Below are positions 18,548-57,219 of a stretch of DNA of 64,000 nt, one piece after another; positions within the stretch are counted from its first letter, which is position 1; each line of letters begins with the position of its first letter. This DNA is from Paenibacillus sp. FSL W8-0426 (GTDB lineage: Bacteria; Bacillota; Bacilli; Paenibacillales; Paenibacillaceae). The stretch lies in the NCBI RefSeq assembly GCF_037969725.1, contig NZ_CP150203.1, positions 1,070,001 through 1,134,000 on the forward strand. Direction: 5' to 3'. The position numbers were made by a program, and so were the translations under genes. A model generated the notes under the pieces. It made no database searches. It was not told the DNA's origin and worked only from the letters and a program-made list of their open reading frames with translations.

Positions 18548-18730
18548 TAACGAACATCACACGTCTTATTCGGGCGATATCAAGCTGATTCCGGCGCTAA
18601 CGAATCTCAGACACCTTATTTGTGGATTTCAGGGTCGTGGTACATGGGTTTGGCTGAAATAGCGCTCCTCAGGTTCGTTACCATTTCAAGAAGGCCTGAT
18701 AATCCCGAATAAGGTGTGTCGGGTTCGTTA
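18548..18730. repeat. 183-bp inverted module of four 23-nt units (locus A)
   Basis: Units related to TAACGAAYCT...ACACCTTATT lie forward at 18548-18570 and 18598-18620 and inverted at 18658-18680 and 18708-18730. Start spacings are 50, 60 and 50 nt, so the module is symmetric about 18639 and unit 1 can pair with unit 4, unit 2 with unit 3. The intervening sequences are not conserved. It lies between convergent genes. The same geometry recurs at 57037-57219 and partly at 31859-31992. Confidence 0.85.
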
Positions 18731-18742
18731 CAGGTACGAGAA

Positions 18743-18797
18743 AAAAACCGAAACGGGAACTGGCCAATAAGGCCGTGTCCGGTTTCGGTTTTTGCGT
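18743..18797. terminator. Bidirectional terminator
   Basis: AAAAACCGAAAC (18743-18754) pairs with GTTTCGGTTTTT (18782-18793), with an inner TGGCC/GGCC stem. It lies between the convergent TetR gene and the secreted protein gene. The rest of the 18403-18901 gap holds repeat module A and nothing else I can recognise. Confidence 0.8.
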
Positions 18798-18901
18798 TGA
18801 GGCGTTTCATGCGGAGGCGAGGCGTAACACGTGGTGAAGCGTCAAATACGTGGGCTTCTCATGCGAGGGGCATGCGCCAATGCTCTCTTTACCAGAGGCA
18901 A

Positions 18902-21700
18902 TTAGCTAGCCAAAGGCAACGCTTTTGTGACTTGAACCGTAATTGTTTCGGTGCTTGTCACACCGGCTGAATTCACCAGCTCAGCACGGTACGTGTACGT
19001 TCCGTTGGCACGACCGGACAGTTCGGTTACCGCGCTTTGCGCAGAAGGCGTTGCTGCATTCAGCGCTTGCGTGTCGATCAACACATCGTTTTCATAGAGA
19101 CGGTATTCCGTGGCATTGGTTCCCCACCACAGATTCATGGTGACTTTGTAGCTGCCGTCTCCATCCCAATTGTCCTGGGAAAGCACGGCTTTGCCTGGAG
19201 CGGCATTGGCTACGGTCACGGTCAGCGTCTGGCTGCGAGTCGTGCCTTTGTCGTTCGTCAACTCAGCAACATACGTGTAAGTACCGTTCGATTTGCCTTG
19301 AATTTTCGTTTCGGCAGTTTGAGCCATCGGTGCATTGTAAGTCAGCTTTTGTGTGTCGATCAGCACGCCGTCTTCATACAGCTTGTAGCTGGTTGCATTC
19401 TCGCCCCACCACAGGTTCATGCTCACCGTGTACGTGCCTTCAAGCAGTCCGTTGGCATGGCCGTTGTTGTGGGAAAGCACCGGTGTACCCGGTGCCCCCG
19501 CTGCTGGAGTCGTTGGTTCCTGTTCTTCTTGCTCAGCCGGAACAAAATCGTCCAGGCTTCTTGGTTTCAACTGGAACACATCTTTGAAAATAGCGGATAC
19601 GCCAGTGATGGAAATTTTGTCGCCTTCCGCATAAGGGAAGGAGGACTGGCTTACACCAGTGCGCGTATCCACGCGGATGTGCGTGCTTGTGCCGTCTGCA
19701 GCTACCGCGTCAAACTCAAAGGAGCCTGCAGGCGCGGCGCTGACGATATTTTGAATCGTCACGTCTTTCAGTTCGAGCAGCTGCCCTTGATTGTCTGCCG
19801 TTACCGTTTGAGCCTCTACTGGAGCGGGAATGGAAGCCGTTCCCGTTTTCTCGATGGCAACGATATCGGTCAATTCAAACTCGGTATTATACAGCGTCGA
19901 TGCCGCAGTAATTTTCACGACATCGCCTGCATGATAACCGCTGGCACTTTGAAAGACGTACAATCCGCCGGTTTCATCCTGCATGTAAAAGGCTTGTCCG
20001 CCGAATGCGCCCGGCTCGGTCGTGATTACGCCTTCCACGGTCACCGTGGAGCCGATGGCTTTGGCACGTGCTTCGGCAATGCTGATTGGTGCCGGGATCG
20101 GTCCTTCTTCTCCCGGAAGCGGTTCGGCCGGAACGTTGGCGATCGTCACGGCATTCGTGATCAGGTTGCCTCCGTTCAGGCGCAGGCGCAGGTTGGCTGC
20201 ACCGGAAGTGCCCGGTTTGATGCGCACGTTCAAATCCTTGATGGCACGGCCTTTGCTGTCGGACGTCACGCTGAAGGCCGAGCTGTATCCATAGGAGGTC
20301 GGCCAAGTGCCGCTCTCGTTCTGAACCATGGCTACTTGCGTACCGCCAGCCAGGTAGATCCCTGCGCTGAAGCCGGATACGGTCGTATTGGCAGGCATGT
20401 TTTCAACGACGACGCGAATTTGGAAGTCTTCTGCGTTAGGCAGCGTATCCTGCTTCACGAAGCTGTATGTGGCGTTTGCGCTGGAGGCAGGTCCGCCGTA
20501 CGAGCCTGGTTTGAAGGTGGAACGGTCATACCATTTGTATCCTGCAGCAGGTGCGGCCCATGGTTCTGCCTGAGGCTCCGTGGACAGGGCAGGTGTTTCG
20601 AACGGCAGCAGTGCCGTAGGGTTGTCCAGTTGCAGGCCGGGAACCTGCGTCAGACTGGTGTAGCTTTCCTGCGTAGCGAGCCAGTTCACCATGTTGACGA
20701 GCAGCGCGGCATCGTCCACTTCTTTGAAGCCGTCATACGTTGTTTTGCGTGCGCCTGTTTCTTCACGCAAATATTTCGGAGAAGCATCCTCAACCGGGGA
20801 AGAGTCACCGATGAAGCCGGCTTTGCCTGCACCAAGTTTGGATACGGCTACGTAAGGACCTTCTTCAACGCCGCCGCCGTTGTAAACGCCTTGGTCAACC
20901 GCATTTGGCCAAGCTGCGTTTGTTTTCGGCAGGTATACGATCCCTTTGGCTTGCGTCGGATCGGTGATCGCAAGCGTGGACCCAGCGTGCATCGCTACTG
21001 CAGATACGCCTTCCGTAATGCCGAATGCCTGATCGGCAGGAACGATGTTCGTCGCGTTAAGGTCGCCGAGCGCGTTGTAACGGAAACGGACGCCGAAGTT
21101 CTCGGACAGCCAGTCCGTGCTGGTCACGTCTTTCATGGCTTCCGAATTGCTTTCCTCGGCGCTCATGCCTTTGGTTGGATTGCCGAATGCGCCGCGGCGG
21201 TAACCGTTAATGGCTTCGGAACCGTCCCAGCGGTTTTTGTTGCGGTCGGCATTGTAATGGTCGCCGATGAAGAAAATGCTGCCGCCGTTTTCGACGTATT
21301 GCTTCATGGCTGCCTGTTCCGATGTTTTATATGGAATGTTAGGCTCTGCGACGACGAACACGTTATAATCCTTCAGATCGTCATACGTGATGGGCGTCGT
21401 TTTGCGCAGTTCTTTGACATCATAGCCTTCGTTTGCAAGGCCATTGGCAAAATCGGAGAAACCGCCGTCAATAACCCAGTCCGCAGCGCCCGCCGTTTGA
21501 GCATGGGTATTGTCGAACAATACCTTTTTACCTGCATTTTCATTGACAACCTTGGCCTGAATGAAAGGAGCCGGGTCGGTCGGACCCTCTGCATGTACCG
21601 ATGCATTGGCATCCCATAATCCGAATTGAAGCGGCAAAGCCATGGATACGGCCAGAAACGCTTTTACCCCTTTTCCTCTCCAATTTTTCCAGTTAGCCAA
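18902..21700 (-). CDS. Large secreted multidomain protein (GldG/GATase-like, OB-fold, two ChiA-N-like domains)
   Basis: A 932-residue exported protein. The best start is a TTG at 21700 with GGGAGGG 7 nt before it; it opens a signal peptide (ANWKNWRGKGVKAFLAVSMALPLQ, cleavage near NASVHA). About residues 45-330 hold a class I glutamine-amidotransferase-like region (VLFDNTHAQTAGAADW, YNVFVVAEPN, YVENGGSIFFIGDHYNADRN), about 390-520 a beta-sandwich, about 535-720 an OB-fold (VTVEGVITTEPGAFGGQAFYMQDETGG) like those in secreted nucleases, and two about 95-residue repeats at the C-terminus (PVLSHNNG...MNLWWGENA and AVLSQDNW...MNLWWGTNA) resembling chitinase A N-terminal modules. No classic catalytic motif was found. 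Function unknown; binding of DNA or chitin-like polymers at the cell surface is possible. Confidence 0.72.
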   Translation of the reverse strand: MANWKNWRGKGVKAFLAVSMALPLQFGLWDANASVHAEGPTDPAPFIQAKVVNENAGKKVLFDNTHAQTAGAADWVIDGGFSDFANGLANEGYDVKELRKTTPITYDDLKDYNVFVVAEPNIPYKTSEQAAMKQYVENGGSIFFIGDHYNADRNKNRWDGSEAINGYRRGAFGNPTKGMSAEESNSEAMKDVTSTDWLSENFGVRFRYNALGDLNATNIVPADQAFGITEGVSAVAMHAGSTLAITDPTQAKGIVYLPKTNAAWPNAVDQGVYNGGGVEEGPYVAVSKLGAGKAGFIGDSSPVEDASPKYLREETGARKTTYDGFKEVDDAALLVNMVNWLATQESYTSLTQVPGLQLDNPTALLPFETPALSTEPQAEPWAAPAAGYKWYDRSTFKPGSYGGPASSANATYSFVKQDTLPNAEDFQIRVVVENMPANTTVSGFSAGIYLAGGTQVAMVQNESGTWPTSYGYSSAFSVTSDSKGRAIKDLNVRIKPGTSGAANLRLRLNGGNLITNAVTIANVPAEPLPGEEGPIPAPISIAEARAKAIGSTVTVEGVITTEPGAFGGQAFYMQDETGGLYVFQSASGYHAGDVVKITAASTLYNTEFELTDIVAIEKTGTASIPAPVEAQTVTADNQGQLLELKDVTIQNIVSAAPAGSFEFDAVAADGTSTHIRVDTRTGVSQSSFPYAEGDKISITGVSAIFKDVFQLKPRSLDDFVPAEQEEQEPTTPAAGAPGTPVLSHNNGHANGLLEGTYTVSMNLWWGENATSYKLYEDGVLIDTQKLTYNAPMAQTAETKIQGKSNGTYTYVAELTNDKGTTRSQTLTVTVANAAPGKAVLSQDNWDGDGSYKVTMNLWWGTNATEYRLYENDVLIDTQALNAATPSAQSAVTELSGRANGTYTYRAELVNSAGVTSTETITVQVTKALPLAS

Positions 21701-22117
21701 CCAAAATCCCTCCCAAAAATTAGTGGATTCCACAATCCGTTCATAGTTTAACATCCAAAATCTCACATCGTCATAACAATATGTAAAAACATGGTCATAA
21801 ATTGTTAAAACAGGTCTTATGAACCACTGAAGGGCCGTCTATGGCGACATGTACACCATTGAAAATAGGAGGGATTATCGCAGAAAACAAAGGAAATTGG
21901 AATGAATGAGAGAAATACACGGAATGGGGTGTTTCTTTGGAATTGCATTCCTGTGGTCCAATGGGGGACGTTATCCGTCTGGATTATACGAAAATGAGGA
22001 AATATGGGCTGCAAGGGATAGGCGCTTTTTCCTGGTTTCCCGCAGCCTGAATGGAAGACTCGACGCGAAAAATGCTTTTCCGCGATGCAAGATGACGATT
22101 TTTGTAAAAATGGACCG
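21701..22117. other. Intergenic region, no gene recognised
   Basis: This gap of about 420 bp contains the upstream region of the minus-strand secreted protein and the space behind the sigma factor gene. Short open frames here have no ribosome sites or recognisable domains, and I saw no clear hairpin terminator. Confidence 0.5.
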
Positions 22118-22594
22118 CTAGGAGATGATCTTGGCGCGGATCCGGTTGACGGCGTGAAAGACCGAAGATTTGATCATGCCCTCACTCCGGTTTACCAACT
22201 GTGCTGTCTCTTTAACCGAGAAACCGTGAATCAGGCGCAATTTCAATATTTCGCGATGCTCCGTGTTGGTGACAAAAGAGACCAGTTCATCGACGCCATC
22301 GTCGATTTCAAGCCCGTATGTATCACAATGATAGGTAGGCATATCTAGCTTGCTGTCGCGTCTGTGCGTCCGGGTACGCTTGCGGAAGGTATCCATGGCG
22401 AGATTGCGGGCAATTCTTTTTAGATAATAGAGGATTCGATCCTCGGGAACGTCGGCCTTGCTTTGCAGCAGCCGGATGAAACATTCCTGGGCGGCATCCT
22501 CCGCATCTTGCGGATGTTTCAAGATGTTGTACAGATACTGAACGATTTCGGATTTATATTGAAGATAGACGTGGCTGATGTCGATTGGATTCAT
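22118..22594 (-). CDS. ECF-type RNA polymerase sigma factor
   Basis: A 158-residue sigma-70 family protein with regions 2 and 4 only. The start at 22594 follows CAGAGGAGAG. Region 2 is IVQYLYNILKHPQDAEDAAQECFIRLLQ (DAEDAAQE is the typical 2.1-2.2 segment) and YYLKRIARNLAMDTFRKRTRT (2.4). Region 4 is TEHREILKLRLIHGFSVKETAQLVNRSEGMIKSSVFHAVNRIRAKI. No anti-sigma factor gene is adjacent on either side, which is unusual for this class, so the signal that releases it is not visible here. Confidence 0.85.
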   Translation of the reverse strand: MNPIDISHVYLQYKSEIVQYLYNILKHPQDAEDAAQECFIRLLQSKADVPEDRILYYLKRIARNLAMDTFRKRTRTHRRDSKLDMPTYHCDTYGLEIDDGVDELVSFVTNTEHREILKLRLIHGFSVKETAQLVNRSEGMIKSSVFHAVNRIRAKIIS

Positions 22595-22847
22595 GGGGCG
22601 CTCTCCTCTGGTGTATGTTCTTGGCCGTGCCTTGCAGTTGAAATCCATTATATCGGCACCATGTTTCCAAAAAGGACGAGGTTGTATCGGAGTTGTAACA
22701 TTTGAGCGATGGGGCTGGTCAAGTTTGGGAACTGGCGACAGAATAAAAGAAGAAGCTGGGTGAAAAGGAACGTTTCACCGCAGCATGGTTAGGGTTGAAG
22801 CCCGAATCGGGGCAGACGATAAATAGACAGGGAGATTCTGAAAGCAT

Positions 22848-23561
22848 ATGAGACCTAAACGGATTTTGATCATTGAAGACGAGGAGGGCATTCGCGACAT
22901 TTTATCGTATTCGCTGCGCAAGGAAGGTTTCGAGATTCATGAAGCGGCGACCGGCAGAGGCGGACTTTCACAACTGGAACAGCACCAGCCGGACCTGGTA
23001 TTGCTGGACCTGATGCTGCCGGACATGAGCGGATTCGATATATGCAGGCATTTGTCCGTGACGACCCGGACGCCGGTCATCATGATTACGGCCAAGTCGG
23101 ACATGCTGGACAAGGTGCTCGGCATGGAGCTTGGGGCAGACGATTATATCACGAAGCCGTTCGACATTCGCGAGGTTGTGGCGCGCATTCGTGCCATTTT
23201 CCGCCGCATCGGGCTCATCGGCGAGACGATGGAACAGCCTGTCCGCGAGGCGACGCGCCTTGGCAGGCATATCGAAATTTACCGGGACGAGCGCGAAGTG
23301 TGGAAGGACGGCGAACGCGTGCTGCTGACCAACAAGGAGTACGACCTGCTGATGTTTCTTGTGGAACATAACCGCAAGGTGTTTACCCGTTCCGAGCTGC
23401 TGGACAAAGTGTGGGGATTCGAATTTGCCGGGGATACCCGCACGGTGGACATCCATGTGCAGCGCATCCGAAAAAAGCTGGATCAAGGCCACGCGGCTGC
23501 TTCAATCATCGAAACGGTATTCGGGGTGGGATACAAGCTTGATACCCAGGTGCAGGCATGA
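22848..23561 (+). CDS. OmpR/PhoB family response regulator
   Basis: A 237-residue two-component regulator. The receiver domain shows ILIIEDEEG (acidic pocket), VLLDLMLPDMSG with phospho-acceptor Asp54, PVIMITAKSD and DDYITKPFDIREVVARI (conserved Lys). The C-terminal winged helix contains LTNKEYDLLMFLVEHNRKVFTRSELLDKVWGFEFAGDTRTVDIHVQRIRKKL. It overlaps the histidine kinase start by 4 nt and must be its partner. Confidence 0.92.
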   Translation: MRPKRILIIEDEEGIRDILSYSLRKEGFEIHEAATGRGGLSQLEQHQPDLVLLDLMLPDMSGFDICRHLSVTTRTPVIMITAKSDMLDKVLGMELGADDYITKPFDIREVVARIRAIFRRIGLIGETMEQPVREATRLGRHIEIYRDEREVWKDGERVLLTNKEYDLLMFLVEHNRKVFTRSELLDKVWGFEFAGDTRTVDIHVQRIRKKLDQGHAAASIIETVFGVGYKLDTQVQA

Positions 23562-25018
23562 GATGGACGATCCAGTTCAAAATGGCAGCCTTGTTTGCCG
23601 TGATCGTATTCATCGGATTTGCGGCCCTGCTGCTTGTGTTCAACAAAGTGAGCGAGGACAACATGTACCGCGAGATCGACGAAGATATGGTACAGTTTAA
23701 AAAAAACCTGGATATCGCGGTCAATCAATATTTTTTGCTGAAAAATAAACGCATGAACGAAAACGCCATCGAATCCAACGTGGACGACATGGAAAAGCAA
23801 ATCGGCTTGTCCATCGGGGGTGAGATCGACATCTACCGGGCAGACGGTTCATCGTTCAAATATCCGGCAGGCGATGTTCAGCCGAGCCTCATCTACCGGG
23901 CGGATGTGGAGGCGGCGATGAAATCCAACATTGCCTACGGCACCCGGATTAATAAAGGGCATGTCACGGCCAGTTTGTCCGCGCCCTTGATTAGCGAAGA
24001 CAAGGTGGTCGGCATCATTCGTTTCCAGAAGGATTATTCGAGCCTCTATCGGCGCCATCTACGCTTTCAGGATACGATCAGCGCTTTTGCGATCATAATC
24101 TTTGTTTTTGTGTTCTTGGGATCGATTCTGATCTCTCGAAGGATGACGCAGCCGATTCGGGTGCTCACGCAGCATTCGAAGGCGGTGGCGCAAGGCAGCC
24201 TCAATCCGGACATCGAGGTGCAGACCCGGGACGAGATCGGCGAGCTGGCCGTCAGCTTCTCCAATATGATTCGGCGGATTCGGCAGCAGATCGATGTTAT
24301 CGAACGCGAACGCGACGAGGTGAAACAGGTTCAGGAGCGCAGCAAGGTTTTTTTCGATAATGTAACGCATGAATTGAAGACACCGCTCACGACGATTCTG
24401 GGATACGCCCAGATTTTGCGGGATAACGGATTTACCGACAAGGCTTTTTTCGAAAAGGGATTGAATTACATCATCAACGAAAGCCGTCGCTTGAACACGA
24501 TGGTTGTCGACATTTTGGAAACTTCCGTAGCCGCCGCCCCGGGGCAGACGTTCCGGTTCGAGCGGATCAACGTATCGGCCGTTCTGAAGGAAGCCTGCGA
24601 CGATATGTCGTTCAAGGCGGCCAAGTACAACATGACGGTCAAGTCGGAGCTGGAAGATCCGCTGTATATGCAGGGGGACGGTGACAAATTAAAGGAAGCG
24701 TTTCTTAATGTGCTCGATAATTCAATCAAATACGGATACGTAAATTCGATAATTACAGTGAATGCGTTCCGGATCGGCGGCGAAATCGCCATTTTGATCC
24801 GCGATCAAGGGGAAGGGGTTCGAGAAGAAGCGCTGGAGCGCATCTTCGAGCCGTTTTATCGTGAGAATGACGTCAACCGGGAAGAAAAGGGCAGTGCGGG
24901 TCTCGGCTTGTCCATCGTCAAAAATACGATTGAGCACCATGGAGGGCAGGTCAAGATGACCAGCGTGTTGGGCAGGGGGAGCGAAATGAGAATATTATTG
25001 CCGGAGCAGCGCCCATGA
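23558..25018 (+). CDS. Membrane sensor histidine kinase
   Basis: A 486-residue kinase. A transmembrane helix at about residues 9-28 and another at about 170-190 flank an extracytoplasmic sensor of about 140 residues (with IGGEIDIYRADGSSFKYPAG, Cache-like). A HAMP linker follows (ISRRMTQPIRVLTQHSKAVAQG). The dimerisation box is FDNVTHELKTPLTTILGYAQ with His271, and the ATPase domain has NVLDNSIKYG (N box), IRDQGEGV (G1) and GSAGLGLSIVKN (G2). It overlaps the regulator gene upstream and the propeller-like gene downstream by 4 nt each. The ligand is unknown. Confidence 0.9.
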   Translation: MRWTIQFKMAALFAVIVFIGFAALLLVFNKVSEDNMYREIDEDMVQFKKNLDIAVNQYFLLKNKRMNENAIESNVDDMEKQIGLSIGGEIDIYRADGSSFKYPAGDVQPSLIYRADVEAAMKSNIAYGTRINKGHVTASLSAPLISEDKVVGIIRFQKDYSSLYRRHLRFQDTISAFAIIIFVFVFLGSILISRRMTQPIRVLTQHSKAVAQGSLNPDIEVQTRDEIGELAVSFSNMIRRIRQQIDVIERERDEVKQVQERSKVFFDNVTHELKTPLTTILGYAQILRDNGFTDKAFFEKGLNYIINESRRLNTMVVDILETSVAAAPGQTFRFERINVSAVLKEACDDMSFKAAKYNMTVKSELEDPLYMQGDGDKLKEAFLNVLDNSIKYGYVNSIITVNAFRIGGEIAILIRDQGEGVREEALERIFEPFYRENDVNREEKGSAGLGLSIVKNTIEHHGGQVKMTSVLGRGSEMRILLPEQRP

Positions 25019-26187
25019 ACAAAGGGTGGAATTGGTTAAAAGACAAGCGAGACATCGTCCTATTAGCCGGGATGCTGGTTGCGTTCGTAGGCGGGCTGTA
25101 CGGCATCGGCAGCTTGTTCGGTATCGTGTCGGCCAAACCGAGATTGGTCGTCCTGCCCGAGAGCCGCGTAGGCGGGGCGCTTGCGCTTGCGCCGGAGCCG
25201 GATTCGTCCTTTCGGCTGGAGTCGGCGAGCAAACAGCAGAACGATTTCCCGATGTTCGATTTCCGGGTTGCCGAGCAGAATGCCATTTTTTTGAATCGGT
25301 TTCGCGCTTCCTATTCGGGCGTCAAGTTGTCGATGTTATACATGGATGACAATCATGTGAAAGATATCGCGACAAACACCGATTTTGGCATGGCCCTTAG
25401 CCCGGACGGCACCAAGGTTGTGTACAGCCGCTACGATGAGAGAAACAAGCCTCAACTATACGCATACGACTGGAAAAAGGGAACGCACCGGAAGCTGAAG
25501 GATGACCATGCCTACTGGCGCGAATTCATCGGAGACGATGTGTACGTCGCCTATGATGATGATCAATATAAAAAGGTCGACCTTACCACAGGCGATCAGG
25601 ATTCGATCATTACCCATGATGAATTGTCCTCGCGTGTGTCAAGGCTCGCCGGAAATACGGCTTCGAAAGACGTTTTGACCATGCCGGAAAGCGTTGCGGT
25701 CAGCAAAGACCGACGTTTTTTCTATGTTACGGTCCAGTATGGAGAGAACAAAGAGGGTATTTACCGGATGTCGCTGAAAGACGGCGAGCAGGACGAGCTC
25801 CTGGCCAAGACCGAGTACATTCAGGAGTTCAGTGTATTGAATAATGGCAGCATCGTTATGTTGGGCGAGGTGAACGGCACGCACGGGTTATATTTGTACA
25901 AGCCGGAGAACAAGGAGTTCAAGCTGCTTCACAAAGGGGACATTTACGGATTCGGCATGGATGAAGACAGGTCGAGGATCGCCTATTTGGACGTGCTGGA
26001 CAATCAGGAAGGGCAGAATGAGCTGCATGTGGCTTATTTGAAAAACGGGGCATTATCCTCGGATACGGTGATCTACCGCAACATTCAGGATTTCTACAAA
26101 CTGCTCTGGTCCGGGGACAGTCTGTTTGTCGGAGGCAGCTCCATGGACATGAGCGAAATCTATCGTTTTACGTTCCGGGTATGGTAG
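25015..26187 (+). CDS. Membrane-anchored beta-propeller-like protein of the two-component operon
   Basis: A 390-residue protein of unknown function. One N-terminal membrane helix (about residues 14-36, IVLLAGMLVAFVGGLYGIGSLFGIVSA) would place the rest outside. The body has repeated strand patterns like TolB/WD-type propellers: GMALSPDGTKVVYSRYDERNKPQLYAYDW, VAVSKDRRFFYVTVQYGENKEGIYRMSL, FSVLNNGSIVMLGEVNGTHGLYLY and FGMDEDRSRIAYLD. The start overlaps the kinase stop by 4 nt (ATGA), so its product is made together with the kinase. An accessory sensor or modulator of the kinase is the natural inference. Confidence 0.65.
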   Translation: MNKGWNWLKDKRDIVLLAGMLVAFVGGLYGIGSLFGIVSAKPRLVVLPESRVGGALALAPEPDSSFRLESASKQQNDFPMFDFRVAEQNAIFLNRFRASYSGVKLSMLYMDDNHVKDIATNTDFGMALSPDGTKVVYSRYDERNKPQLYAYDWKKGTHRKLKDDHAYWREFIGDDVYVAYDDDQYKKVDLTTGDQDSIITHDELSSRVSRLAGNTASKDVLTMPESVAVSKDRRFFYVTVQYGENKEGIYRMSLKDGEQDELLAKTEYIQEFSVLNNGSIVMLGEVNGTHGLYLYKPENKEFKLLHKGDIYGFGMDEDRSRIAYLDVLDNQEGQNELHVAYLKNGALSSDTVIYRNIQDFYKLLWSGDSLFVGGSSMDMSEIYRFTFRVW

Positions 26188-26218
26188 GGGCAAATGTAGT
26201 AGAAGATAGCAATGATGG

Positions 26219-26266
26219 GGGTTCCCGTCTGAAAGCAAACGAGCTTTCCGGCGGGAACCTTTCAAC
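26219..26266 (+). terminator. Terminator of the two-component operon
   Basis: A two-level hairpin: outer GGTTCCCG with CGGGAACC, inner GAAAGC with GCTTTC, followed by TTTCAACTTCTT. Confidence 0.75.
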
Positions 26267-26273
26267 TTCTTAA

Positions 26274-26288
26274 TGAGAATTGTTTTCA
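26274..26288. promoter_or_regulatory. Fur box before the AraC-type regulator
   Basis: TGAGAAT-T-GTTTTCA matches the 7-1-7 Fur consensus TGATAATNATTATCA at 12 of 14 fixed positions. It lies in the leader of the araC-like gene, about 100 bp before the start codon, so iron should repress this gene. Confidence 0.65.
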
Positions 26289-26377
26289 ATTATAATATAA
26301 TGGGTTGTGGATTCAATGCCATGACCAGACACACAAGCGTATGCTTCTGCATCAACATAGAGGAGGTGAAACGTGCA

Positions 26378-28405: not shown

Positions 28406-28412
28406 TCCATTG

Positions 28413-29480: not shown

Positions 29481-29540
29481 ACCAGACCAATGCCATTAAG
29501 TTCGACTTATCTTCATGACATTGTCTATAAACGGGTTGGC

Positions 29541-31680: not shown

Positions 31681-31830
31681 GCAAAACGGCTGTGGGCTGT
31701 GGGCAAAACGTTGTGGCAAGATGCAAGACGCTGTAGACAAGATGCTGTAGGCCAGATGTTGCTGGCAAGATGCTGTTGAAGACGCTGTAGGCAAGACGTT
31801 GTAGACAAAACGCTGTGGATGAAGACGCAG
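31681..31830. repeat. Imperfect 14-nt tandem repeat
   Basis: About ten degenerate units close to ACGCTGTAGGCAAG (variants begin ATG, ACG or AACG; GTAGACAAG, GTAGGCCAG) run head to tail. There is no supported gene over it. It lies just upstream of repeat module B in the long gap 31486-32604. Confidence 0.7.
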
Positions 31831-31858: not shown

Positions 31859-31992
31859 TAACGAACCTGACACACGTTATTACGCCTAAATGAGCCCTTT
31901 TTTGGCCTGATTTACCCTAAATAAGACGCCGGAAGTTCGTTAGAATTCCATAAGGGCTGAAATTTGCGGAATAAGGTGTCAGAAGTTCGTTA
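31859..31992. repeat. Partial 23-nt repeat module (locus B)
   Basis: One forward unit at 31859-31881 and two inverted units at 31920-31942 and 31970-31992. The spacing of the last two is exactly 50 nt and the forward unit is within 1 nt of the position of unit 2 in modules A and C; unit 1 is missing. Downstream, 32000-32160 contains short direct repeats of the AGAGCACC and CAAAGAAC type but no supported gene. Confidence 0.8.
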
Positions 31993-32560
31993 GAGTTCAA
32001 GAGTGTAGCACATTGGGGGAGAGCACCCAAGAAGTATCTAAGGAGCACCCTAGAAGCACCCGATGCGACAAACAGTACGAACCAGGAATACCAGCAAGAC
32101 GCACAAATAAAGAGCACCATCAAAGAACACCACCAAAGAACGCCAACAAGGATCACCTGCACATACTTGGGTTCGCCTAAGGAAAAAGCGTCTCCTTTGC
32201 AAGAGGGCCTATCCTCACCGAATCGCATCCTGCCTTAATATCATAGCTTTCAGGCATTATTGCCAAACTTGTAAGAGAGCGGGCCAATAAAAGATTCTCC
32301 CTCCAAGATTGCAGAAGGCTACTCTAGTTGTGTAATGGCAACATAGACCCTCCTACCTCAACGCCCCTCCCATGTACGCGTCATCCCCATATGTTACAAA
32401 TTGGATACATCCACCGTCAGGACGGATACAACTCGCCACTATAATCAAGGTGTACATAACGATGGGAAACCCATCCGCACGTCTGCGAACTATCGGAGTT
32501 CGCCAGAGTTTTTCCGGTTGCCGGTCCCGGCGAGGAGAGAAGTTGAGGTAAGGCGAGGTA

Positions 32561-46908: not shown

Positions 46909-46924
46909 CGGGGCGGAGAGCTTC

Positions 46925-47989: not shown

Positions 47990-48004
47990 CGGAGGCTGAA
48001 AAAA

Positions 48005-50013: not shown

Positions 50014-50224
50014 TATTGTACTATGCATCGTTTCATGAAGCGTGACCCAGTTAGAGAGCTCATCAGCCAAAATAGGATAAACGCTCCGCTCCGGCTTCCC
50101 CAATGTGCAGTGATGCATGTTGGCGGACAGCCGGAGTTTTGCGTTATACGGACAGCCGCGATGGGTCCAAACCTGCTACAATGGAGCCATGACGATATGG
50201 CAGAACGGACGGGGAGGTTAGGAT

Positions 50225-51280
50225 ATGGAACAGGGAAAGTTGAACGGGAGTTTGTACCAGCCGGAGCTGCGCGCGGGAGACTGCGGTCCGCGTTTTTACG
50301 CCTACTACTACAAGCAATGGGACGATTACGAAATGTCCCACCATGTTCACGATTCGACCGAAATCATGTACATCATATCCGGCATGTGCAGAGTGGACGT
50401 CAAGATGCCGGACGGCAGCACGGAACAGGCGGTGTTGAAAAAAGGACAGTTCATCCTGCTGGATGCGGGCGTTCCGCACCGATTGCTGGTGCAGGACGGC
50501 GTGCCCTGCCGGATGCTTAACGTGGAATTCGGCTTTGCGCCCGCAGCGCCGGGCCAGCCTTCGATTCGCCAGCTCGCGCGGGAAGAGCAGGAGGTCGCAG
50601 CTCTGCTCGACGGAGCGTCTCCTTATCTGGTGCTGCCTGACCCGGAAGAGGTATACCACATCATGAAAAGCCTGGTGCTGGAGCTGGACCAGCGCGGCTT
50701 GGCTGCGCAGGAACGGCAGGATCGAACAGGCGCCGCCGCGTCCGCAGCGCCGAGTCCGCTGCGCGTGCTTGCGCCCGAAGAACGCTCGCAGCATCGCGAA
50801 GCCCGCAACCTGCAGTTTCCCGAACAGGGCACGTTAGTGCGCACGCTGTTCGTCCAGCTGCTGGTTCGGGTGGCCCGCCTGCGCGGGGAGCAGCGCCGAA
50901 GCGCGCTTGACCAGACCGAGCTGTACGTGAAGCGCACGATCGAGTTCATGCATCAGAACATGGACCGCAGCATTCAAATGAAGGAGATCGCCGCAGCCGT
51001 CAACCTGCATCCGGGGTATTTGCACCGCATCTTCCGCAAGCATGCGGGACGAACCCCTGCCGATTACCTGACGATGCTGCGCATGGAAAAGGCCAAAATG
51101 CTGCTGCAGCAGACCGACATTCCCGTATCGGAAATCTCGGATTACGTGGGCGTGGGCAGCCGCCAATACTTTCATATGCTGTTCAAAAAACATACGGGGC
51201 TGACGCCGCTGGAATTCCGGGCATCCATGGAGCGCCATGTTAGCCATTATCCGGATGGCAGCCATGCGGAGGGGGAATGA
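50225..51280 (+). CDS. AraC family transcriptional regulator with N-terminal cupin
   Basis: A 351-residue regulator behind CGGGGAGGTTAGG. The cupin sensor domain is MSHHVHDSTEIMYIISGMCRVDVKMPDGSTEQAVLKKGQFILLDAGVPHRLLV. The C-terminal DNA-binding part is SIQMKEIAAAVNLHPGYLHRIFRKHAGRTPADYLTMLRMEKAKMLLQQTDIPVSEISDYVGVGSRQYFHMLFKKHTGLTPLEFR. An Ala/Arg-rich stretch of about 40 residues in the middle has unusually high GC. It lies directly before the GH4 gene and probably activates it. Confidence 0.85.
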   Translation: MEQGKLNGSLYQPELRAGDCGPRFYAYYYKQWDDYEMSHHVHDSTEIMYIISGMCRVDVKMPDGSTEQAVLKKGQFILLDAGVPHRLLVQDGVPCRMLNVEFGFAPAAPGQPSIRQLAREEQEVAALLDGASPYLVLPDPEEVYHIMKSLVLELDQRGLAAQERQDRTGAAASAAPSPLRVLAPEERSQHREARNLQFPEQGTLVRTLFVQLLVRVARLRGEQRRSALDQTELYVKRTIEFMHQNMDRSIQMKEIAAAVNLHPGYLHRIFRKHAGRTPADYLTMLRMEKAKMLLQQTDIPVSEISDYVGVGSRQYFHMLFKKHTGLTPLEFRASMERHVSHYPDGSHAEGE

Positions 51281-51418
51281 AAAGTGAGGATTTTTGACAC
51301 CCTTTCCGCAAACAGGTCATGATTTTGATAACGCTTCCCCGAAAGGCATTGCTACAATGGACTCATGTGGTGAAACAATAACCGAAGCAGTGTCTTCGGA
51401 CAATGGGAGGACATGGGC

Positions 51419-52924
51419 ATGTCGTTTAAAGTGGCCTTTATCGGGGCAGGCAGCATCGGATTCACGCGCGGATTGTTGCGGGATCTGCTGACCGTGCCGG
51501 AGTTCAAAAACATCGAGGTGGCGTTCTGCGACATCAACCAGCATAACCTGGACATGGTGACCGAGCTGTGCCAACGGGATATTCGCGAGAACGGACTGGA
51601 CATCCAGATTCAACCGACGACGGACCGCAGAGAAGCGCTCAAGGATGCCAAGTACGTGCTGTGCACGATACGGGTAGGCGGGCTTGAAGCGTTTGCGACC
51701 GACGTGGACATTCCGCTCAAATACGGGGTGGACCAGTGCGTCGGGGACACGCTGTGCGCGGGCGGCATTATGTACGGGCAGCGCGGCATCGCCGAGATGC
51801 TGGACATCTGCAAGGACATTCGCGAGCAGAGCGCGCCGGACGTGCTGCTGCTCAACTACTCGAACCCGATGGCCATGCTGACTTGGGCCTGCAACACATA
51901 CGGCGGCGTGCGCACGATCGGTTTGTGCCACGGGGTACAGCATGGGCACCATCAGATCGCAGAAGTGTACGGGCTGGATAAAAAGGACGTCGATATCGTC
52001 TGCGCGGGCATCAACCATCAGACGTGGTACATCAAGGCGTCGCACAAGGGCGAGGACCTGACGGCAGGTTTGCTTGAAGCGTTCGAGAAACATCCGGAGT
52101 ACAGCCGGACCGAAAAGGTGCGCATCGACATGCTGCGCCGCTTCGGGTATTACAGCACGGAATCGAACGGCCATCTGAGCGAATACGTGCCTTGGTACCG
52201 CAAACGTCCGGACGAAATTCAAGACTGGATCGACCTGGGCAGCTGGATCAACGGGGAGACCGGAGGGTATTTGCGGGTATGCACGGAAGGACGCAACTGG
52301 TTCGAAACCGACTTCCCGAACTGGATGAAAGATGAGCCTATGCGTTTCGTTCCGGAAAAACGAGGCGAAGAGCACGGTTCGTACATTATCGAATCGCTGG
52401 AAACGGGACGCGTATACCGCGGGCATTTCAACACTGTCAACAACGGCGTGATCTCCAACCTGCCGAATGACGCGATCATCGAAGCGCCGGGCTATGTCGA
52501 CCGCAACGGCATCTCGATGCCGCATGTCGGCGATCTGCCGCTCGGCCCGGCAGCCGTATGCAACGTCAGCATTTCGGTACAACGTCTGGCGGTAGAGGCC
52601 GCAGTGCATGGCGATGACCAGTTGCTGCGTCAGGCATTCATGATGGACCCGCTCGTCGGCGCGGTATGCAATCCGAAAGAGATTTGGCAAATGGTCGACG
52701 AGATGCTGGTCGCACAGGCGAAATGGCTGCCGCAATACGGCGAAGCCATTGCAGCGGCGAAAGAGCGGCTTGCGGCAGGCAACCTTATTCCGACGAAAGC
52801 ATACGAAGGCGCAGCGCGGCTCAAAGTGAAAACGGTGGAAGAGATGCAGCAGGACCGCGATGCCGCCAACAAAAACGCGGGCGAGTCCGACAAGGGCAAA
52901 GATCGCGAAAAGGTACAGCAATAA
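51419..52924 (+). CDS. GH4 family alpha-glycosidase (alpha-galactosidase/alpha-glucosidase/alpha-galacturonidase type)
   Basis: A 501-residue cytoplasmic glycosidase with the NAD- and Mn-dependent GH4 mechanism. The ATG at 51419 is 8 nt after GGGAGG. VAFIGAGSIGFTRGLLRDLL is the NAD site; CTIRVGGLEAFATDVDIPLKYGVDQCVGDTLCAGGIMYG, LLLNYSNPMAMLTWACNTY, IGLCHGVQHGH (Mn-binding Cys-His) and GINHQTWYIKA are family motifs. The CHGVQ variant and the NPMAMLTW stretch fit the MelA/LplD side of the family, not the 6-phospho-glycosidases. The C-terminus carries a 25-residue charged tail (QQDRDAANKNAGESDKG). The adjacent AraC gene and the nearby pectin lyase make alpha-galactosides or galacturonides plausible substrates. 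Confidence 0.87.
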   Translation: MSFKVAFIGAGSIGFTRGLLRDLLTVPEFKNIEVAFCDINQHNLDMVTELCQRDIRENGLDIQIQPTTDRREALKDAKYVLCTIRVGGLEAFATDVDIPLKYGVDQCVGDTLCAGGIMYGQRGIAEMLDICKDIREQSAPDVLLLNYSNPMAMLTWACNTYGGVRTIGLCHGVQHGHHQIAEVYGLDKKDVDIVCAGINHQTWYIKASHKGEDLTAGLLEAFEKHPEYSRTEKVRIDMLRRFGYYSTESNGHLSEYVPWYRKRPDEIQDWIDLGSWINGETGGYLRVCTEGRNWFETDFPNWMKDEPMRFVPEKRGEEHGSYIIESLETGRVYRGHFNTVNNGVISNLPNDAIIEAPGYVDRNGISMPHVGDLPLGPAAVCNVSISVQRLAVEAAVHGDDQLLRQAFMMDPLVGAVCNPKEIWQMVDEMLVAQAKWLPQYGEAIAAAKERLAAGNLIPTKAYEGAARLKVKTVEEMQQDRDAANKNAGESDKGKDREKVQQ

Positions 52925-53010
52925 GATACAGCAATAAGGTGAACTATAAAGTGAATCTATGAAGTGAAGCGATAAGATGAAGCAACAACATCACTAAGCT
53001 TCATGATGCA

Positions 53011-53057
53011 AGGCGCAGCCGTTAGACGAGGGAGTCTGGCGGCTGGGCTTTTTTTGC
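53011..53057 (+). terminator. Terminator after the GH4 gene
   Basis: A hairpin built from AGCCG-AGAC and GTCT-CGGCT arms, followed by GGGCTTTTTTT. Confidence 0.75.
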
Positions 53058-53161
53058 ATGTGAAAATCGATTATACAAAGCGCGCAATTTGGATTATGAT
53101 GGAATAACCAAGTAAGTTAATGTGTTTACATATAATAGCGATTTAATCTAGGAGGATGATA

Positions 53162-54349
53162 ATGATGTCAACTATACCTGAACCATTGACCACCGAACTG
53201 ATCGAGCAAGCTATTGCCTGGCGCAGGCATTTGCACCGGCATCCCGAGCTTTCGTTTCAGGAACATGAAACGTCCCGGTACATCGCCGGCATATTGGAAT
53301 CGTTCGGCGGACTGGAGATCAGCCGCCCTACGCCGACAAGCGTCGTTGCCAAGCTGATCGGCGCCCATCCGGGCAAAACGCTGGCTCTGCGTGCAGACAT
53401 CGACGCATTGCCGATTGAAGAGGAAGCGCCGATCGAGGACGCTTCCCGCAATCCGGGCGTCATGCATGCCTGCGGGCATGACGGGCATACGGCCACGCTG
53501 CTGGCCGTGGCCAAGCTGCTTAGCGCGCGAAAGGAGCAGCTTCGCGGCGAGATTCGCTTTATTTTCCAGCATGCGGAGGAAATGCCGCCAGGCGGGGCAA
53601 GAGAACTGGTCGCGGCAGGCGTCATGGACGGGGTGGATTGGGTCGTGGGCGAACACTTGGCTTCCCTGCTGCCTGTCGGTCAAATAGGCATTGCCTATGG
53701 CGAAATGATGGCTTCGCCGGACAACTTCACGATTCTTGTCAAAGGGTACGGCGGACATGCGGGATCTCCACATAGGGCGGTGGACGTCATCGCCATTGGC
53801 GCCCAAATCGTGACCAACCTGCAGCACATCGTGTCCCGGAATGCCGATCCGCTGGAGCGCCTCGTGGTATCCATTGCCCAATTTACCGCAGGGGCCTCCC
53901 ACAATGTCATTCCGGATCAGGCGATCATCAAAGGAACGGTACGGAGCTTCAGCACGGAAGTGCGGGAAGAGGCCGAAAGACAGATCGAGCGCATCGCCGG
54001 CGGAGTCGCTTCGGCCCATGGAGCGAGCATCGAGCTGGATTACGTGTACGGCTACGATCCGGTCGTGAATGACGAGGGACTGACCCGTACGATTGAAGCG
54101 GTGCTGGTGGAAACGTTTGGCCGGGACGCCGTCGTTCATCAACCCCCATCCATGGGCGGCGAGGATTTCTCGGCGTATCAGCGCGTCGTTCCAGGGACGT
54201 TTTTCAATATCGGCGCAGGCAATGTGGATAAAGGCATCGTGTATCCCCATCATCATCCCAAATTTATGATTGACGAAGAAGCGCTGCAGAACGGCATATT
54301 GGCTTTCGTTAAAATTGCGGAACATTTGCTTGAGTGGAACCGGGATTAG
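53162..54349 (+). CDS. M20 family amidohydrolase/aminoacylase
   Basis: A 395-residue metal-dependent hydrolase that removes acyl groups from amino acids or related amides. AIAWRRHLHRHPELSFQEHETSRYI, ALRADIDALPIEEEAP, GVMHACGHDGHTATLLAVAKLL and IFQHAEEMPPGGARELVAAGVMDGVDWVVGEHL are the standard motifs, with the Cys-His-Asp-Gly-His cluster and the HAEE catalytic pair. A lid domain is seen at GYGGHAGSPHRAVDVIAIGAQIVTNLQ. The start is ATG 53162, 6 nt after AGGAGG; 53156 is too close. It precedes an amino acid importer operon and may process its substrate. Confidence 0.87.
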   Translation: MMSTIPEPLTTELIEQAIAWRRHLHRHPELSFQEHETSRYIAGILESFGGLEISRPTPTSVVAKLIGAHPGKTLALRADIDALPIEEEAPIEDASRNPGVMHACGHDGHTATLLAVAKLLSARKEQLRGEIRFIFQHAEEMPPGGARELVAAGVMDGVDWVVGEHLASLLPVGQIGIAYGEMMASPDNFTILVKGYGGHAGSPHRAVDVIAIGAQIVTNLQHIVSRNADPLERLVVSIAQFTAGASHNVIPDQAIIKGTVRSFSTEVREEAERQIERIAGGVASAHGASIELDYVYGYDPVVNDEGLTRTIEAVLVETFGRDAVVHQPPSMGGEDFSAYQRVVPGTFFNIGAGNVDKGIVYPHHHPKFMIDEEALQNGILAFVKIAEHLLEWNRD

Positions 54350-54498
54350 TCAAACAATGTTCAACATCTGGATATGCAGGATAGGATTAACCTTGCGAAT
54401 CTCTCGACTCTTTTTCCATGCTATGTTATTATAAAAACTCTGATAACGTGGTAACGAGCTAAAGCGTTTTGCTGGCTATAGACATGGAGGGGTAAGAA

Positions 54499-55272
54499 AT
54501 GATGAAGAAAAAGGGAATCGTACTGTTACTGATCAGCATGTTCATCGTTGTACTCGCGGGCTGTTCGGGCTCGGCAAGCAAAGACGACAATACCATCGTC
54601 GTAGGCATCGACGACAAATTCGCTCCGATGGGTTTCCGTGACGAGCAAAACGAAATCGTAGGTTTCGATATTGATTATGCCCGCGCGGCCGGGGAGAAAA
54701 TGGGTAAAGAGTTCACGTTCCAGCCGATCGACTGGTCTTCCAAGGAATCCGAGCTGAACAGCGGCCGCATCGACCTGATCTGGAACGGATACACGATCAC
54801 GGACGAGCGCAAGGAGAAAGTCCTGTTCACGAAGCCGTATCTGGAGAATAGCCAGGTGGTCGTGACGCTGGCCGATTCGCCGATTACGAAGCTGGACGAG
54901 CTGGACGGCAAAAACGTCGGTCTGCAAGCATTGTCCTCTGCGGCAGATGCACTCGCGGCAAGCCCGCTGAAAGACAAAGTAAAAGCTTCCGAATTCAAGG
55001 ATAACGTACTTGCCCTGACCGACCTCAAAACGAAACGCCTGGATGCCGTCATCATCGACGAGGTTGTAGCAAGATACTACATGTCCAAAGAAGAAGGAAC
55101 GTTCAAACTGCTGGACGAATCGCTCGCTCCCGAGCAATATGGCGTTGGCGTGAAGAAAGGCAATGAAGCACTGTTGAACGAGCTGCAAAAAGCCCTTGAC
55201 GAGATGAACGCGGACGGCACGGCTGCCGAAATTTCGAACAAGTGGTTTGGCGAAAACAAGGTGCTGAAATAA
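54499..55272 (+). CDS. Polar amino acid ABC transporter binding lipoprotein
   Basis: A 257-residue lipoprotein of family 3: MMKKKGIVLLLISMFIVVLAGC has lipobox LAGC (Cys22). VVGIDDKFAPMGFRDEQNEIVGFDIDYARAAGEKMGKEFTFQPIDWSSKESELNSGRIDLIWNGYTITDERKEKVLF is the typical amino acid-binding segment, and the end AAEISNKWFGENKVLK is typical too. Ribosome site TGGAGGGG. The ligand is likely a polar amino acid such as cystine, glutamine or arginine; this cannot be settled from sequence alone. Confidence 0.88.
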   Translation: MMKKKGIVLLLISMFIVVLAGCSGSASKDDNTIVVGIDDKFAPMGFRDEQNEIVGFDIDYARAAGEKMGKEFTFQPIDWSSKESELNSGRIDLIWNGYTITDERKEKVLFTKPYLENSQVVVTLADSPITKLDELDGKNVGLQALSSAADALAASPLKDKVKASEFKDNVLALTDLKTKRLDAVIIDEVVARYYMSKEEGTFKLLDESLAPEQYGVGVKKGNEALLNELQKALDEMNADGTAAEISNKWFGENKVLK

Positions 55273-55367
55273 CAGGTTTGATCCGATCCACTTAGAATCG
55301 CAAAGGACCTGACAATATCGATTGAACGGCATGGCCTGAATCCTTTATGCCGCCGTTCACTACCAAG

Positions 55368-55417
55368 TGACCCCGTATTTCCGATGGAGGCAATGCCTTC
55401 GGTGGAGTGCGGGGTCA
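55368..55417 (+). promoter_or_regulatory. Intercistronic hairpin between binding-protein and permease genes
   Basis: TGACCCCG (55368-55375) pairs with CGGGGTCA (55410-55417), with an inner weak stem. There is no T-tract. It probably stabilises the binding-protein transcript or attenuates the following genes, giving an excess of binding protein. Confidence 0.5.
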
Positions 55418-55439
55418 ACAGATTAGAGGAGATTGAATC

Positions 55440-56099
55440 ATGAGCTGGGATTATATATCTACCGTATTAAAACCGATGCTGGATGGGGCGCAGACAACGA
55501 TCATCATGTTTCTGGTCGCGATCGTATTGTCCGTGCCGCTCGGCTTCGGCATAACGCTGGTCATGCGCAGCCGCTTCAAACCGCTGGCCTGGCTGGCGCA
55601 CGCGTACGTTTACGTCATGCGCGGCACGCCGCTGCTGCTGCAGGTGCTGTTCTTCTGCTTCGGCCTGCCGCTGCTGCCGGTGATCGGGGAGCATCTGGTC
55701 TTCGACCGCTTCGTTTCCGCAGCGATTGCGTTTGTGCTGAACTATGCCGCATACTTCGCGGAAATTTTCCGGGGCGGCCTGCTTTCCATCGACAAAGGAC
55801 AGCAGGAAGCGGCGCAGGTGCTGGGGCTTAGCCGCTGGCAAACGATGACGAAAGTCATCGTTCCGCAGATGATCCGCGTGGTGCTGCCGGCAACCGCCAA
55901 CGAATCGATTACGCTGGTGAAGGATACGGCGCTTTTGTACGCCGTGGCCGTGCCGGAGCTGCTGTATTACGCGCAGGCGGCGGTCAACCGCGACATGCAG
56001 CTGATACCGTTTTTCTTGGCGGCAGTCATTTATTTGGTGATGACCCTTGTGCTGACCGTTCTGTTCAAGCTGTTGGAGAAACGTTACTCGTTTAAATAA
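55440..56099 (+). CDS. Polar amino acid ABC transporter permease
   Basis: A 219-residue His/Glu/Gln/Arg-type permease. Signatures: VLKPMLDGAQTTIIMFLVAIVLSVPLGFGITLVMRS, YVYVMRGTPLLLQVLFFCFGLPL, NYAAYFAEIFRGGLLSIDKGQQEAAQVLGLSRWQTMTKVIVPQMIRVVLPATANESITLVKDTAL (EAA loop included). RBS GAGGAGAT. Partner of the binding protein at 54499 and the ATPase at 56154. Confidence 0.9.
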   Translation: MSWDYISTVLKPMLDGAQTTIIMFLVAIVLSVPLGFGITLVMRSRFKPLAWLAHAYVYVMRGTPLLLQVLFFCFGLPLLPVIGEHLVFDRFVSAAIAFVLNYAAYFAEIFRGGLLSIDKGQQEAAQVLGLSRWQTMTKVIVPQMIRVVLPATANESITLVKDTALLYAVAVPELLYYAQAAVNRDMQLIPFFLAAVIYLVMTLVLTVLFKLLEKRYSFK

Positions 56100-56153
56100 A
56101 GCTGCGGCGCAGAGGCCGCACTCAAAATCAATCCGTTAAAGGACTGTCTAAAC

Positions 56154-56909
56154 ATGTCACATATCATAGAAGTCAACCAATTGAAAAAATCGTTCGGCAC
56201 GCTGGACGTCCTGAAGCAGGTTTCCTTCAGCGTGGAGCCGGGCGAAGTCATTGCCGTCATCGGACCGTCGGGCTCCGGCAAAAGCACCATGCTGCGCAGC
56301 CTGATCCATCTGGAGGAAATTACGGGCGGCACGATCCGCCTGCAAAATCAGGTGCTGGTTGAGGACGGACGTTACGCTTCCGGTGCGGACATTCGCAAAA
56401 TGACCGACCGGATGGGCATGGTGTTCCAGCATTTTAACCTGTTCCCGCACCTGACCGTGCGCGCGAATCTGGAGCTGGCGCCGAAGACGCTGAAAAAAGA
56501 AAGCAATGCCGCTATTCGTAAGCGCAGCATGGAACTGCTGGACAAGGTAGGGCTGGCGGACAAGGCCGATACCTATCCGGGCAATCTTTCCGGGGGACAG
56601 AAGCAGCGCGTGGCCATCGCCCGCGCCCTCATGATGCAGCCGGACATCCTGCTCTTCGACGAGCCGACCTCCGCGCTCGATCCCGAGCTGACGGGCGAAG
56701 TGCTGCGGGTCATCAAACAGCTCGCCCAGGAAAACATGACGATGATGATCGTCACCCATGAGATGAGCTTTGCCCGCGACGTCGCGGATCGCATTTTCTT
56801 CATGGACAACGGCGAGATCGCCGAATCCGGTACGCCGGAGCAAATTTTCGGCAATCCGCAGCTGGAGCGTACGCGTACGTTTTTGCAGCGGGTAGAGCTG
56901 GACGCCTAA
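56154..56909 (+). CDS. Polar amino acid ABC transporter ATP-binding protein
   Basis: A 251-residue ATPase. Walker A is [24 protein letters not shown], the Q-loop is [25 protein letters not shown], the signature is [20 protein letters not shown], Walker B is [15 protein letters not shown] and the H-loop is [29 protein letters not shown], all characteristic of GlnQ-type ATPases. Last gene of the amino acid import operon, followed by a terminator at 56927. Confidence 0.9.
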
Positions 56910-56926
56910 GCCAGGCTGCACATCAT

Positions 56927-56980
56927 AAAGAGCGAAATCATGCCGGACCACGAGGGGACCGGAAGATTCGCTCTTTTTTG
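56927..56980 (+). terminator. Terminator of the amino acid ABC operon
   Basis: AAGAGCGAA-TC pairs with GATTCGCTCTT (one bulge), enclosing a CCGG-containing loop; the tail is TTTTTTG. Confidence 0.75.
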
Positions 56981-57036
56981 CGTTGACGATACGATGTATG
57001 CTGATCGTAATTTACGCTGCAGTCTTCCGCGAGCGC

Positions 57037-57219
57037 TAACGAATCTCACACACCTTATGTGGGCCGTTTTCGTGGTTTGCAGCACCTAACGAACCTGAGA
57101 AGTCTTATGCAGCGTAATTTGGGCCGTTCGGGCGTCATTTCACCATAATAACGTGTCTCAGGTTCGTTACGATTCAACGTGAGCTTTATTCCGCTCAATA
57201 GAGTGCGTCACGTTCGTTA
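57037..57219. repeat. 183-bp inverted module of four 23-nt units (locus C)
   Basis: Forward units at 57037-57059 and 57087-57109, inverted units at 57147-57169 and 57197-57219. The start spacings 50, 60, 50 equal those of locus A, 38 kb away, and the symmetry centre is 57128. The sequence CCGCGAGCGC directly precedes the first unit here, as CCGCGAGCGC does in locus A. The last unit overlaps the stop codon of the DUF554 fragment (57217-57219). Located between convergent genes. Confidence 0.85.

What the first reader, a model, noticed from the sequence alone, without database searches (positions are those of the whole stretch)
18548..57219. Interspersed 183-bp module of four 23-nt units with fixed 50/60/50 spacing
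Two loci (18548-18730 and 57037-57219) have the same architecture: two forward and two inverted copies of TAACGAAYCT...ACACCTTATT at offsets 0, 50, 110 and 160. A third locus (31859-31992) retains three units at the same offsets within 1 nt. The units are conserved but the spacers are not, so the geometry itself appears to be selected. Units 1/4 and 2/3 can pair; 50 and 60 nt are close to 5 and 6 helical turns, so all units would face one side of the DNA, fitting binding by a multimeric protein. The two complete copies lie between convergent genes. I know of no described element with this layout.
Basis: seen in the sequence. Interest (0 to 1): 0.82.

Follow-up and report, generated by a model that had tools for sequence, protein, structure and literature searches.

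The report
Dispersed 183-bp four-site DNA modules
Scattered through the chromosomes of soil bacteria related to Paenibacillus are dozens of short DNA stretches that keep four copies of one small sequence at fixed distances while the DNA between them drifts freely, which looks like a docking platform for an unidentified protein that wraps DNA.

Summary
The own chromosome has 37 places matching three units at fixed distance; a single-unit scan found 46 groups, 38 of them full ++-- modules at 50/60/50 within 1 nt. A looser pattern matches 49 of 149 genomes of the order, own included, 35 at least twice. Best reading: a MITE-like, selectively kept platform on which an unknown dimeric protein binds four sites and wraps DNA. 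Protein and role are unknown; ten open-access paper searches listed no description.

The parts
18548..18730 (.). Module 1, complete, spacing 50/60/50
18548..18570 (+). unit 1
   Evidence: 31.1 bits
18598..18620 (+). unit 2
   Evidence: 35.9 bits
18658..18680 (-). unit 3
   Evidence: 30.8 bits
18708..18730 (-). unit 4
   Evidence: 32.2 bits
31859..31992 (.). Module 2, three units (2, 3, 4); unit 1 missing where a tandem repeat array ends
31859..31881 (+). unit 2
   Evidence: 36.3 bits
31920..31942 (-). unit 3
   Evidence: 25.6 bits
31970..31992 (-). unit 4
   Evidence: 31.0 bits
57037..57219 (.). Module 3, complete, spacing 50/60/50
57037..57059 (+). unit 1
   Evidence: 29.9 bits
57087..57109 (+). 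unit 2
   Evidence: 27.2 bits
57147..57169 (-). unit 3
   Evidence: 38.1 bits
57197..57219 (-). unit 4
   Evidence: 24.1 bits

Best explanation
The module is a double-stranded DNA docking platform. Each unit is a site for a dimer (half-site TAACGRA and a weaker mirror); two direct sites, a dyad and two inverted sites, with A/T-rich stretches every 10.06 bp, let an unidentified DNA-binding protein, probably four dimers, hold all sites on one face and wrap about 183 bp around itself. A repeat below 10.5 bp suggests left-handed wrapping, as on nucleosomes (recalled). The module was spread as a MITE-like unit and in some lineages is now kept by selection, most likely as a chromosome-architecture site (topology or segregation): it is rare at divergent promoters, favours gaps between convergent genes and, in several genomes, the origin half. 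Shown: geometry, unit symmetry, phasing, hairpin avoidance, dispersal as a unit in some genomes, slower change of units than spacers in most pairs tested. Inferred: the protein, wrapping, its handedness and the role.
For: Fixed geometry found by single-unit scan and by strict pattern in 20 of 149 genomes, own included, with 0 reversed-control hits; looser pattern 49 of 149, 35 with two or more, against 1-2 reversed-control hits in each of 14 genomes. Spacer A/T period 10.06 bp, bootstrap 10.02-10.08 (own genome, 26 modules) and 10.04-10.08 (138 modules), beyond all 2000 permutations and all 300 rotations; no such peak in own-genome flanks; 10.16 in a third set of 21, beyond 1000 permutations. 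Unit palindromy about the 11th base: 0.51-0.72 of pairs complementary in six of seven groups, against 0.05-0.41 at other centres; in G092 the centre is half a base later, 0.55 (two groups have only 4 units). Tandem arrays keep 50/60/50 inside, with 40, 41, 51 or 81-84 nt between modules. Orthologues in the same gap: core 0.87-0.95, spacer 0.37-0.78; two intermediate pairs pooled, 9 of 120 core against 47 of 182 spacer differences, p = 4e-5. Hairpin avoidance.
Against: No protein was identified and no binding data exist. Origin bias is absent in G077 (22 of 41) and weak in G041 (4 of 6). In one close pair (L174 and the own 57037 module) the core changed more than the spacer, 5 of 60 against 1 of 91. 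Presence is patchy: 100 of 149 genomes show no match even to the looser pattern, so the platform is dispensable. Apparent orthologues across genera turned out to sit in different gaps of the same neighbourhood. Distances between tandem modules do not all fall on multiples of 10.1.
Confidence: 0.48

Rival explanations
1. A purely selfish miniature transposon: the units are transposase sites, two per end, as in IR/DR-type transposons (recalled), and the geometry serves transposition of a very short element. Copies look conserved only because intact ones keep moving.
For: Recent copies in several genomes share only the module, within about 11 nt of its ends; G077 holds a young burst over the whole chromosome; modules occupy different gaps of the same neighbourhood in different species.
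Against: The 26 exact own-genome modules have unrelated spacers (best of 325 pairs 0.49 identical, shuffled maximum up to 0.46) although their units are intact. Modules at the same place in different species keep units over decayed spacers. Exact half-modules in G077 (35 plus 29) form no facing pair 0.3-8 kb apart that could enclose a gene. No recurrent transposase among neighbours by eye (no family search on them). No target duplication seen by eye.
Confidence: 0.27
2. A strong gyrase site, comparable with BIME-2: phased bends capture gyrase where convergent transcription builds up positive supercoils.
For: The E. coli gyrase motif has phased 10-bp G/C variation over 130 bp, and cleavage is enriched downstream of highly transcribed operons (PMC6379681, abstract and passages). 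The module is phased and enriched between convergent genes.
Against: Conserved 23-nt units, two of them outside a 130-bp footprint, are not part of that motif. The rhythm runs straight through the dyad, whereas the gyrase motif has a distinct 36-bp centre. Gyrase is universal; the module was seen only in one order in the searches made (the latter capped).
Confidence: 0.1
3. A transcribed structured RNA or bidirectional terminator made by pairing of units 1/4 and 2/3.
For: 18 of 26 own-genome modules would pair as single strands; fold z-scores -2.2 and -4.1 for two window loci; position at gene 3' ends.
Against: Mates avoid complementarity; no Rfam family at gathering score in the window; no terminator-like hairpin inside 41 module groups by my scan, although the tool's laxer scan reports one match in module 3, against a mean of 0.7 in shuffles.
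Confidence: 0.04

Closest known systems
REP/BIME elements
   Same: Many short intergenic copies, symmetric composite layout, bias to gene 3' ends, spread as a unit
   Different: REPs are 20-40 bp palindromes (PMC3733652, abstract in the listing), hairpin-forming by recall; here potential hairpin mates are kept dissimilar and spacers are free while distances are fixed. A TnpA-REP partner was not seen among neighbours and not searched genome-wide
MITEs
   Same: Short, inverted ends, dispersed without genes; some modules ride inside a larger MITE
   Different: No transposase found, no target duplication seen, two conserved internal units, spacers not shared between old copies
Noc-binding sites (NBS) and SlmA sites
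   Same: Tens of dispersed palindromic binding sites depleted near the terminus (PMC4331003, passages)
   Different: Other sequence; single sites rather than four at fixed distances; this genome has NBS-like sites of its own, 14 at 1 mismatch, none exact, 0 in control
Gyrase wrapping motif and strong gyrase sites
   Same: A/T and G/C alternation every 10 bp over more than 100 bp about a dyad
   Different: No conserved 23-nt units; degenerate; universal enzyme

Membership tests
REP/BIME | unit or paired units form stable hairpins that are maintained | tested here: not met
   Mates 1/4 and 2/3 less alike than all 2000 shuffles; single units only about half complementary in most groups
REP/BIME | associated TnpA-REP (RAYT) transposase | tested here: inconclusive
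   No recurrent transposase cluster by eye among neighbours in 109 loci; not searched genome-wide
MITE | dispersal as a discrete unit with inverted ends | tested here: met
   Identity confined to the module in G120, G098, G075 and one G090 pair; it reaches further in G137 (about 330-475 bp) and in some G077 copies
MITE | target-site duplication | tested here: inconclusive
   None evident by eye; the one clear empty site concerns a larger MITE carrying a module
MITE | parent element with transposase and the same ends | tested here: inconclusive
   No facing pair 0.3-8 kb apart among exact half-modules of G077; mismatched ends and other genomes not examined this way
Structured RNA (Rfam) | match to a curated family or compensatory changes | tested here: not met
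   No match at gathering score in the window; anti-covariation
Noc-binding site | sequence ATTTCCCGGGAAAT (consensus recalled) | tested here: not met
   Units differ; NBS-like sites exist separately
Gyrase site | gyrase cleavage at the dyad | not testable with these tools
   Needs Topo-Seq
Protein-wrapping DNA | A/T rhythm near 10 bp in otherwise free sequence | tested here: met
   wrapping itself not tested
RacA ram sites | ram motif and RacA gene | not tested
   Recalled only; one paper search (listing)

The most novel reading that the evidence does not exclude
Paenibacillales carry a sequence-programmed, nucleosome-like wrapping complex: an unknown dimeric protein assembles on four fixed sites (or on arrays of up to 16 sites), wraps 183 bp left-handedly per module, and marks the origin half of the chromosome for segregation or topology, independently of Noc.
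Probability: 0.25. Interest if true: 0.92.

Novelty: new variant of a known kind. Interest (0 to 1): 0.78.

Why it matters
If right, it points to an order-wide system of chromosome-organising sites whose protein is still to be found, and gives a rare natural case in which selection on nucleoprotein geometry can be read directly because the spacers are free. The 10.06-bp rhythm makes a sharp prediction: adding 5 bp to a spacer should destroy binding, adding 10 bp should restore it. The avoidance of self-pairing is a clean example of selection against palindromes within a symmetric element.

Tried and rejected
Pairing of units as RNA or cruciform: rejected by shuffles. A pooled version across genomes looked positive for every pair of units because genomes differ in consensus; it was replaced by within-genome shuffles on 57 loci that I could assign to ten genomes, of 111 loci, plus 38 own modules; three of the 57 come from JJ-223, a near-twin of the own genome. 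Rfam: nothing at gathering score. Autonomous parent transposon in G077: none among exact half-modules. Presence or absence between sister genomes G077 and G543, sought for a target duplication: L255 is a larger composite MITE, L257 has lost half its module in G543, L240 is not alignable, L256 and L258 align across the module; L242, L251 and L259 matched only in part and were not pursued. Orthology across genera: L236 with the own module at 1300372 was dropped because the modules lie on opposite sides of the tail-tube gene; Cohnella L149 with the own module at 720679 was dropped because one different gene intervenes on each side; a weak third match, L214 with 5097089, was not pursued. A recurrent neighbour gene as binding partner: by eye only transporter, regulator and metabolic genes. 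My first unit pattern was one base too long. The first own-genome origin test used a list with listing bias; searches replaced it. The G077 count missed one listed module; one search corrects it. The terminator scan between genes and modules was too strict to inform. In the loci the 50/60/50 spacing was imposed by the query.
Full report
WHAT IS THERE. The three loci are real and placed as stated. The window is 1070001-1134000 of a 6,909,549-bp chromosome. A single-unit pattern with up to 1 mismatch gives 96 + 101 matches against 23 + 25 for the reversed control. Scoring units one at a time in 353 kb of fetched stretches gave 169 units against none in reversed sequence; they fall into 46 groups, 38 of them complete ++-- modules, 26 at exactly 50/60/50 and 12 off by 1 nt in one gap; the other eight are partial. 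One of those is split by an insertion with rve and HTH_Tnp_1 transposase domains. A three-unit pattern, listed without truncation, gives 37 distinct places by my tally; modules with a 59- or 61-nt centre are outside that pattern.

DISTRIBUTION. The strict four-unit pattern (up to 3 mismatches) matches 20 of 149 genomes of the order, own included, in 11 of 46 genera, with no reversed-control hit. A looser pattern matches 49 of 149 in 26 genera; 35 have at least two matches by my tally, and 14 have one. Reversed controls give 1-2 hits in 14 genomes, so single hits can be chance (G099, G104 and G111 look so). The largest counts are 70, 60 and 48. Of 398 genomes drawn from the phylum only the own one matches, but only seven of those are of its family. 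Two viral-collection contigs match three units; in one the module lies inside a phage-tail gene cluster, in the other beside tail-like ORFs judged by eye.

ANATOMY. Over 138 modules (the query fixed heptamers and distances in at least one module per stretch) the unit reads TAACGAA, a base that is mostly A or T, C, seven variable bases, then C-S-Y-TATT. In other families it is TAACGGA, in places a near or full palindrome such as TAACGGAC-N6-GTCCGTTA. Complementarity about the 11th base is 0.51-0.72 in six of seven groups; in G092 the centre is half a base later (0.55); two groups have only four units. The unit is therefore best read as a dimer site with one strong and one weak half. Spacers carry little base identity apart from A/T runs: the best of 325 own-genome pairs is 0.49 identical. 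They carry a strong A/T rhythm: best period 10.06 bp in the own genome (26 modules) and in others (138), stronger than 2000 column permutations and 300 rotations, and without a peak in own-genome flanks; an independent set of 21 gives 10.16. The rhythm runs through the dyad. P. sp. GM2 has arrays of four modules and variants with extra direct units, with 40, 51 or 81-84 nt between modules; distances between neighbouring modules are not all multiples of 10.1.

PAIRING REJECTED. Units 1/4 and 2/3 could form hairpins, and 18 of 26 modules would do so as single strands. But at the 12 variable positions these mates are less alike than in all 2000 within-genome shuffles, for 95 modules together and for the 57 from ten other genomes alone (three of them from JJ-223, a near-twin of the own genome); same-orientation neighbours are equal or more alike. 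In the own genome alone p is about 0.005 and 0.008. Selection acts against pairing.

MOBILITY AND CONSERVATION. In G120, G098, G075 and one G090 pair, copies about 76-89% identical share only the module, within about 11 nt of its ends, in unrelated flanks. Four G137 copies share about 330-475 bp, and G090 also has tandem copies. G077 shows a young burst with similar spacers; at one G077 site the module is cargo of a larger MITE absent from sister genome G543. No parent transposon and no target duplication were found. Against a purely selfish reading, modules at the same place in different species keep units while spacers decay: L090 with L092 and L093 have core 0.87-0.88, spacer 0.37-0.41, near flank 0.30-0.32; L092 with L093 0.95, 0.78 and 0.59; L094 with L097 0.90, 0.70 and 0.79; that they lie in the same gap was checked. 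Pooling the last two pairs: 9 of 120 core against 47 of 182 spacer differences, p = 4e-5. Random pairs of modules already have core 0.83 and spacer 0.36, so for the first two pairs the message is persistence in place rather than extra similarity. These are two loci of one genus. Of three near-identical pairs with JJ-223, two have no core change and 1-2 spacer changes, and one has more core than spacer change, 5 of 60 against 1 of 91.

LOCATION. By a home-made gene finder, 23 of 42 own-genome groups lie between convergent genes, 18 codirectional, 1 divergent. In other genomes 35 are convergent, 68 codirectional and 13 divergent of 116, tandem copies counted apart, against 20, 81 and 34 of 135 module-free gaps of at least 200 nt. 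With dnaA positions, 31 of 37 own-genome modules lie in the origin half (p = 2e-5), 22 of 24 in G090 (19 of 21 with tandem copies counted once) and 13 of 13 in G118, but 4 of 6 in G041, 2 of 2 in G047 and 22 of 41 in the burst genome G077. Better survival of old copies near conserved origin-proximal genes could give the same bias; I did not exclude it.

MECHANISM. Shown: fixed geometry, symmetric units, phased spacers, hairpin avoidance, spread as a unit in some genomes, slower change of units than spacers in most pairs tested. Inferred: binding by a dimeric protein, wrapping, left-handedness (10.06 against about 10.5 bp of free DNA, recalled), and a role in chromosome architecture. Gyrase is a documented protein with a phased 10-bp motif (PMC6379681, abstract and passages) and remains a rival. 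Noc sites share the terminus depletion (PMC4331003, passages), yet this genome has 14 NBS-like sites of its own.

NOVELTY. Ten full-text searches of open-access papers listed nothing whose title or abstract start describes this layout; most subscription papers and bioRxiv preprints are not held. As a short interspersed intergenic repeat it belongs to a broad known kind; fixed distances with free spacers, the 10.06-bp rhythm and avoidance of hairpins set it apart from the families named above.

Noticed in passing
window 31703-31816, 32022-32061, 32109-32157: Degenerate short tandem arrays flank the third-listed module between two ABC ATPase genes; the first array ends where unit 1 should be.
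   Followed up: partly
L030 1607-2856 (own genome about 994269-995518): A transposase pair with rve and HTH_Tnp_1 domains has inserted into a module, parting units 3 and 4.
   Followed up: yes
L255, L268 (G077): A composite MITE of about 320 bp with its own inverted ends (by eye) and a long hairpin carries a module as cargo; absent at that site in sister genome G543.
   Followed up: partly
L236 8803-8985 and own genome 1300372: Modules sit inside PBSX-like phage-tail gene clusters of two species, on opposite sides of the tail-tube gene.
   Followed up: yes
L149, L155, L075: Three genomes hold a module in the same mutY-sodA-acetyltransferase neighbourhood (gene names by eye), each in a different gap.
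   Followed up: partly
own genome, whole chromosome: 14 Noc-type sites at 1 mismatch, none between 2.38 and 4.61 Mb.
   Followed up: no
L142, L152, L182, L187, L235: Arrays of up to four modules (16 units) and variants with extra direct units; L142, L152, L182 and L187 are from P. sp. GM2, L235 has no title in the listing.
   Followed up: partly
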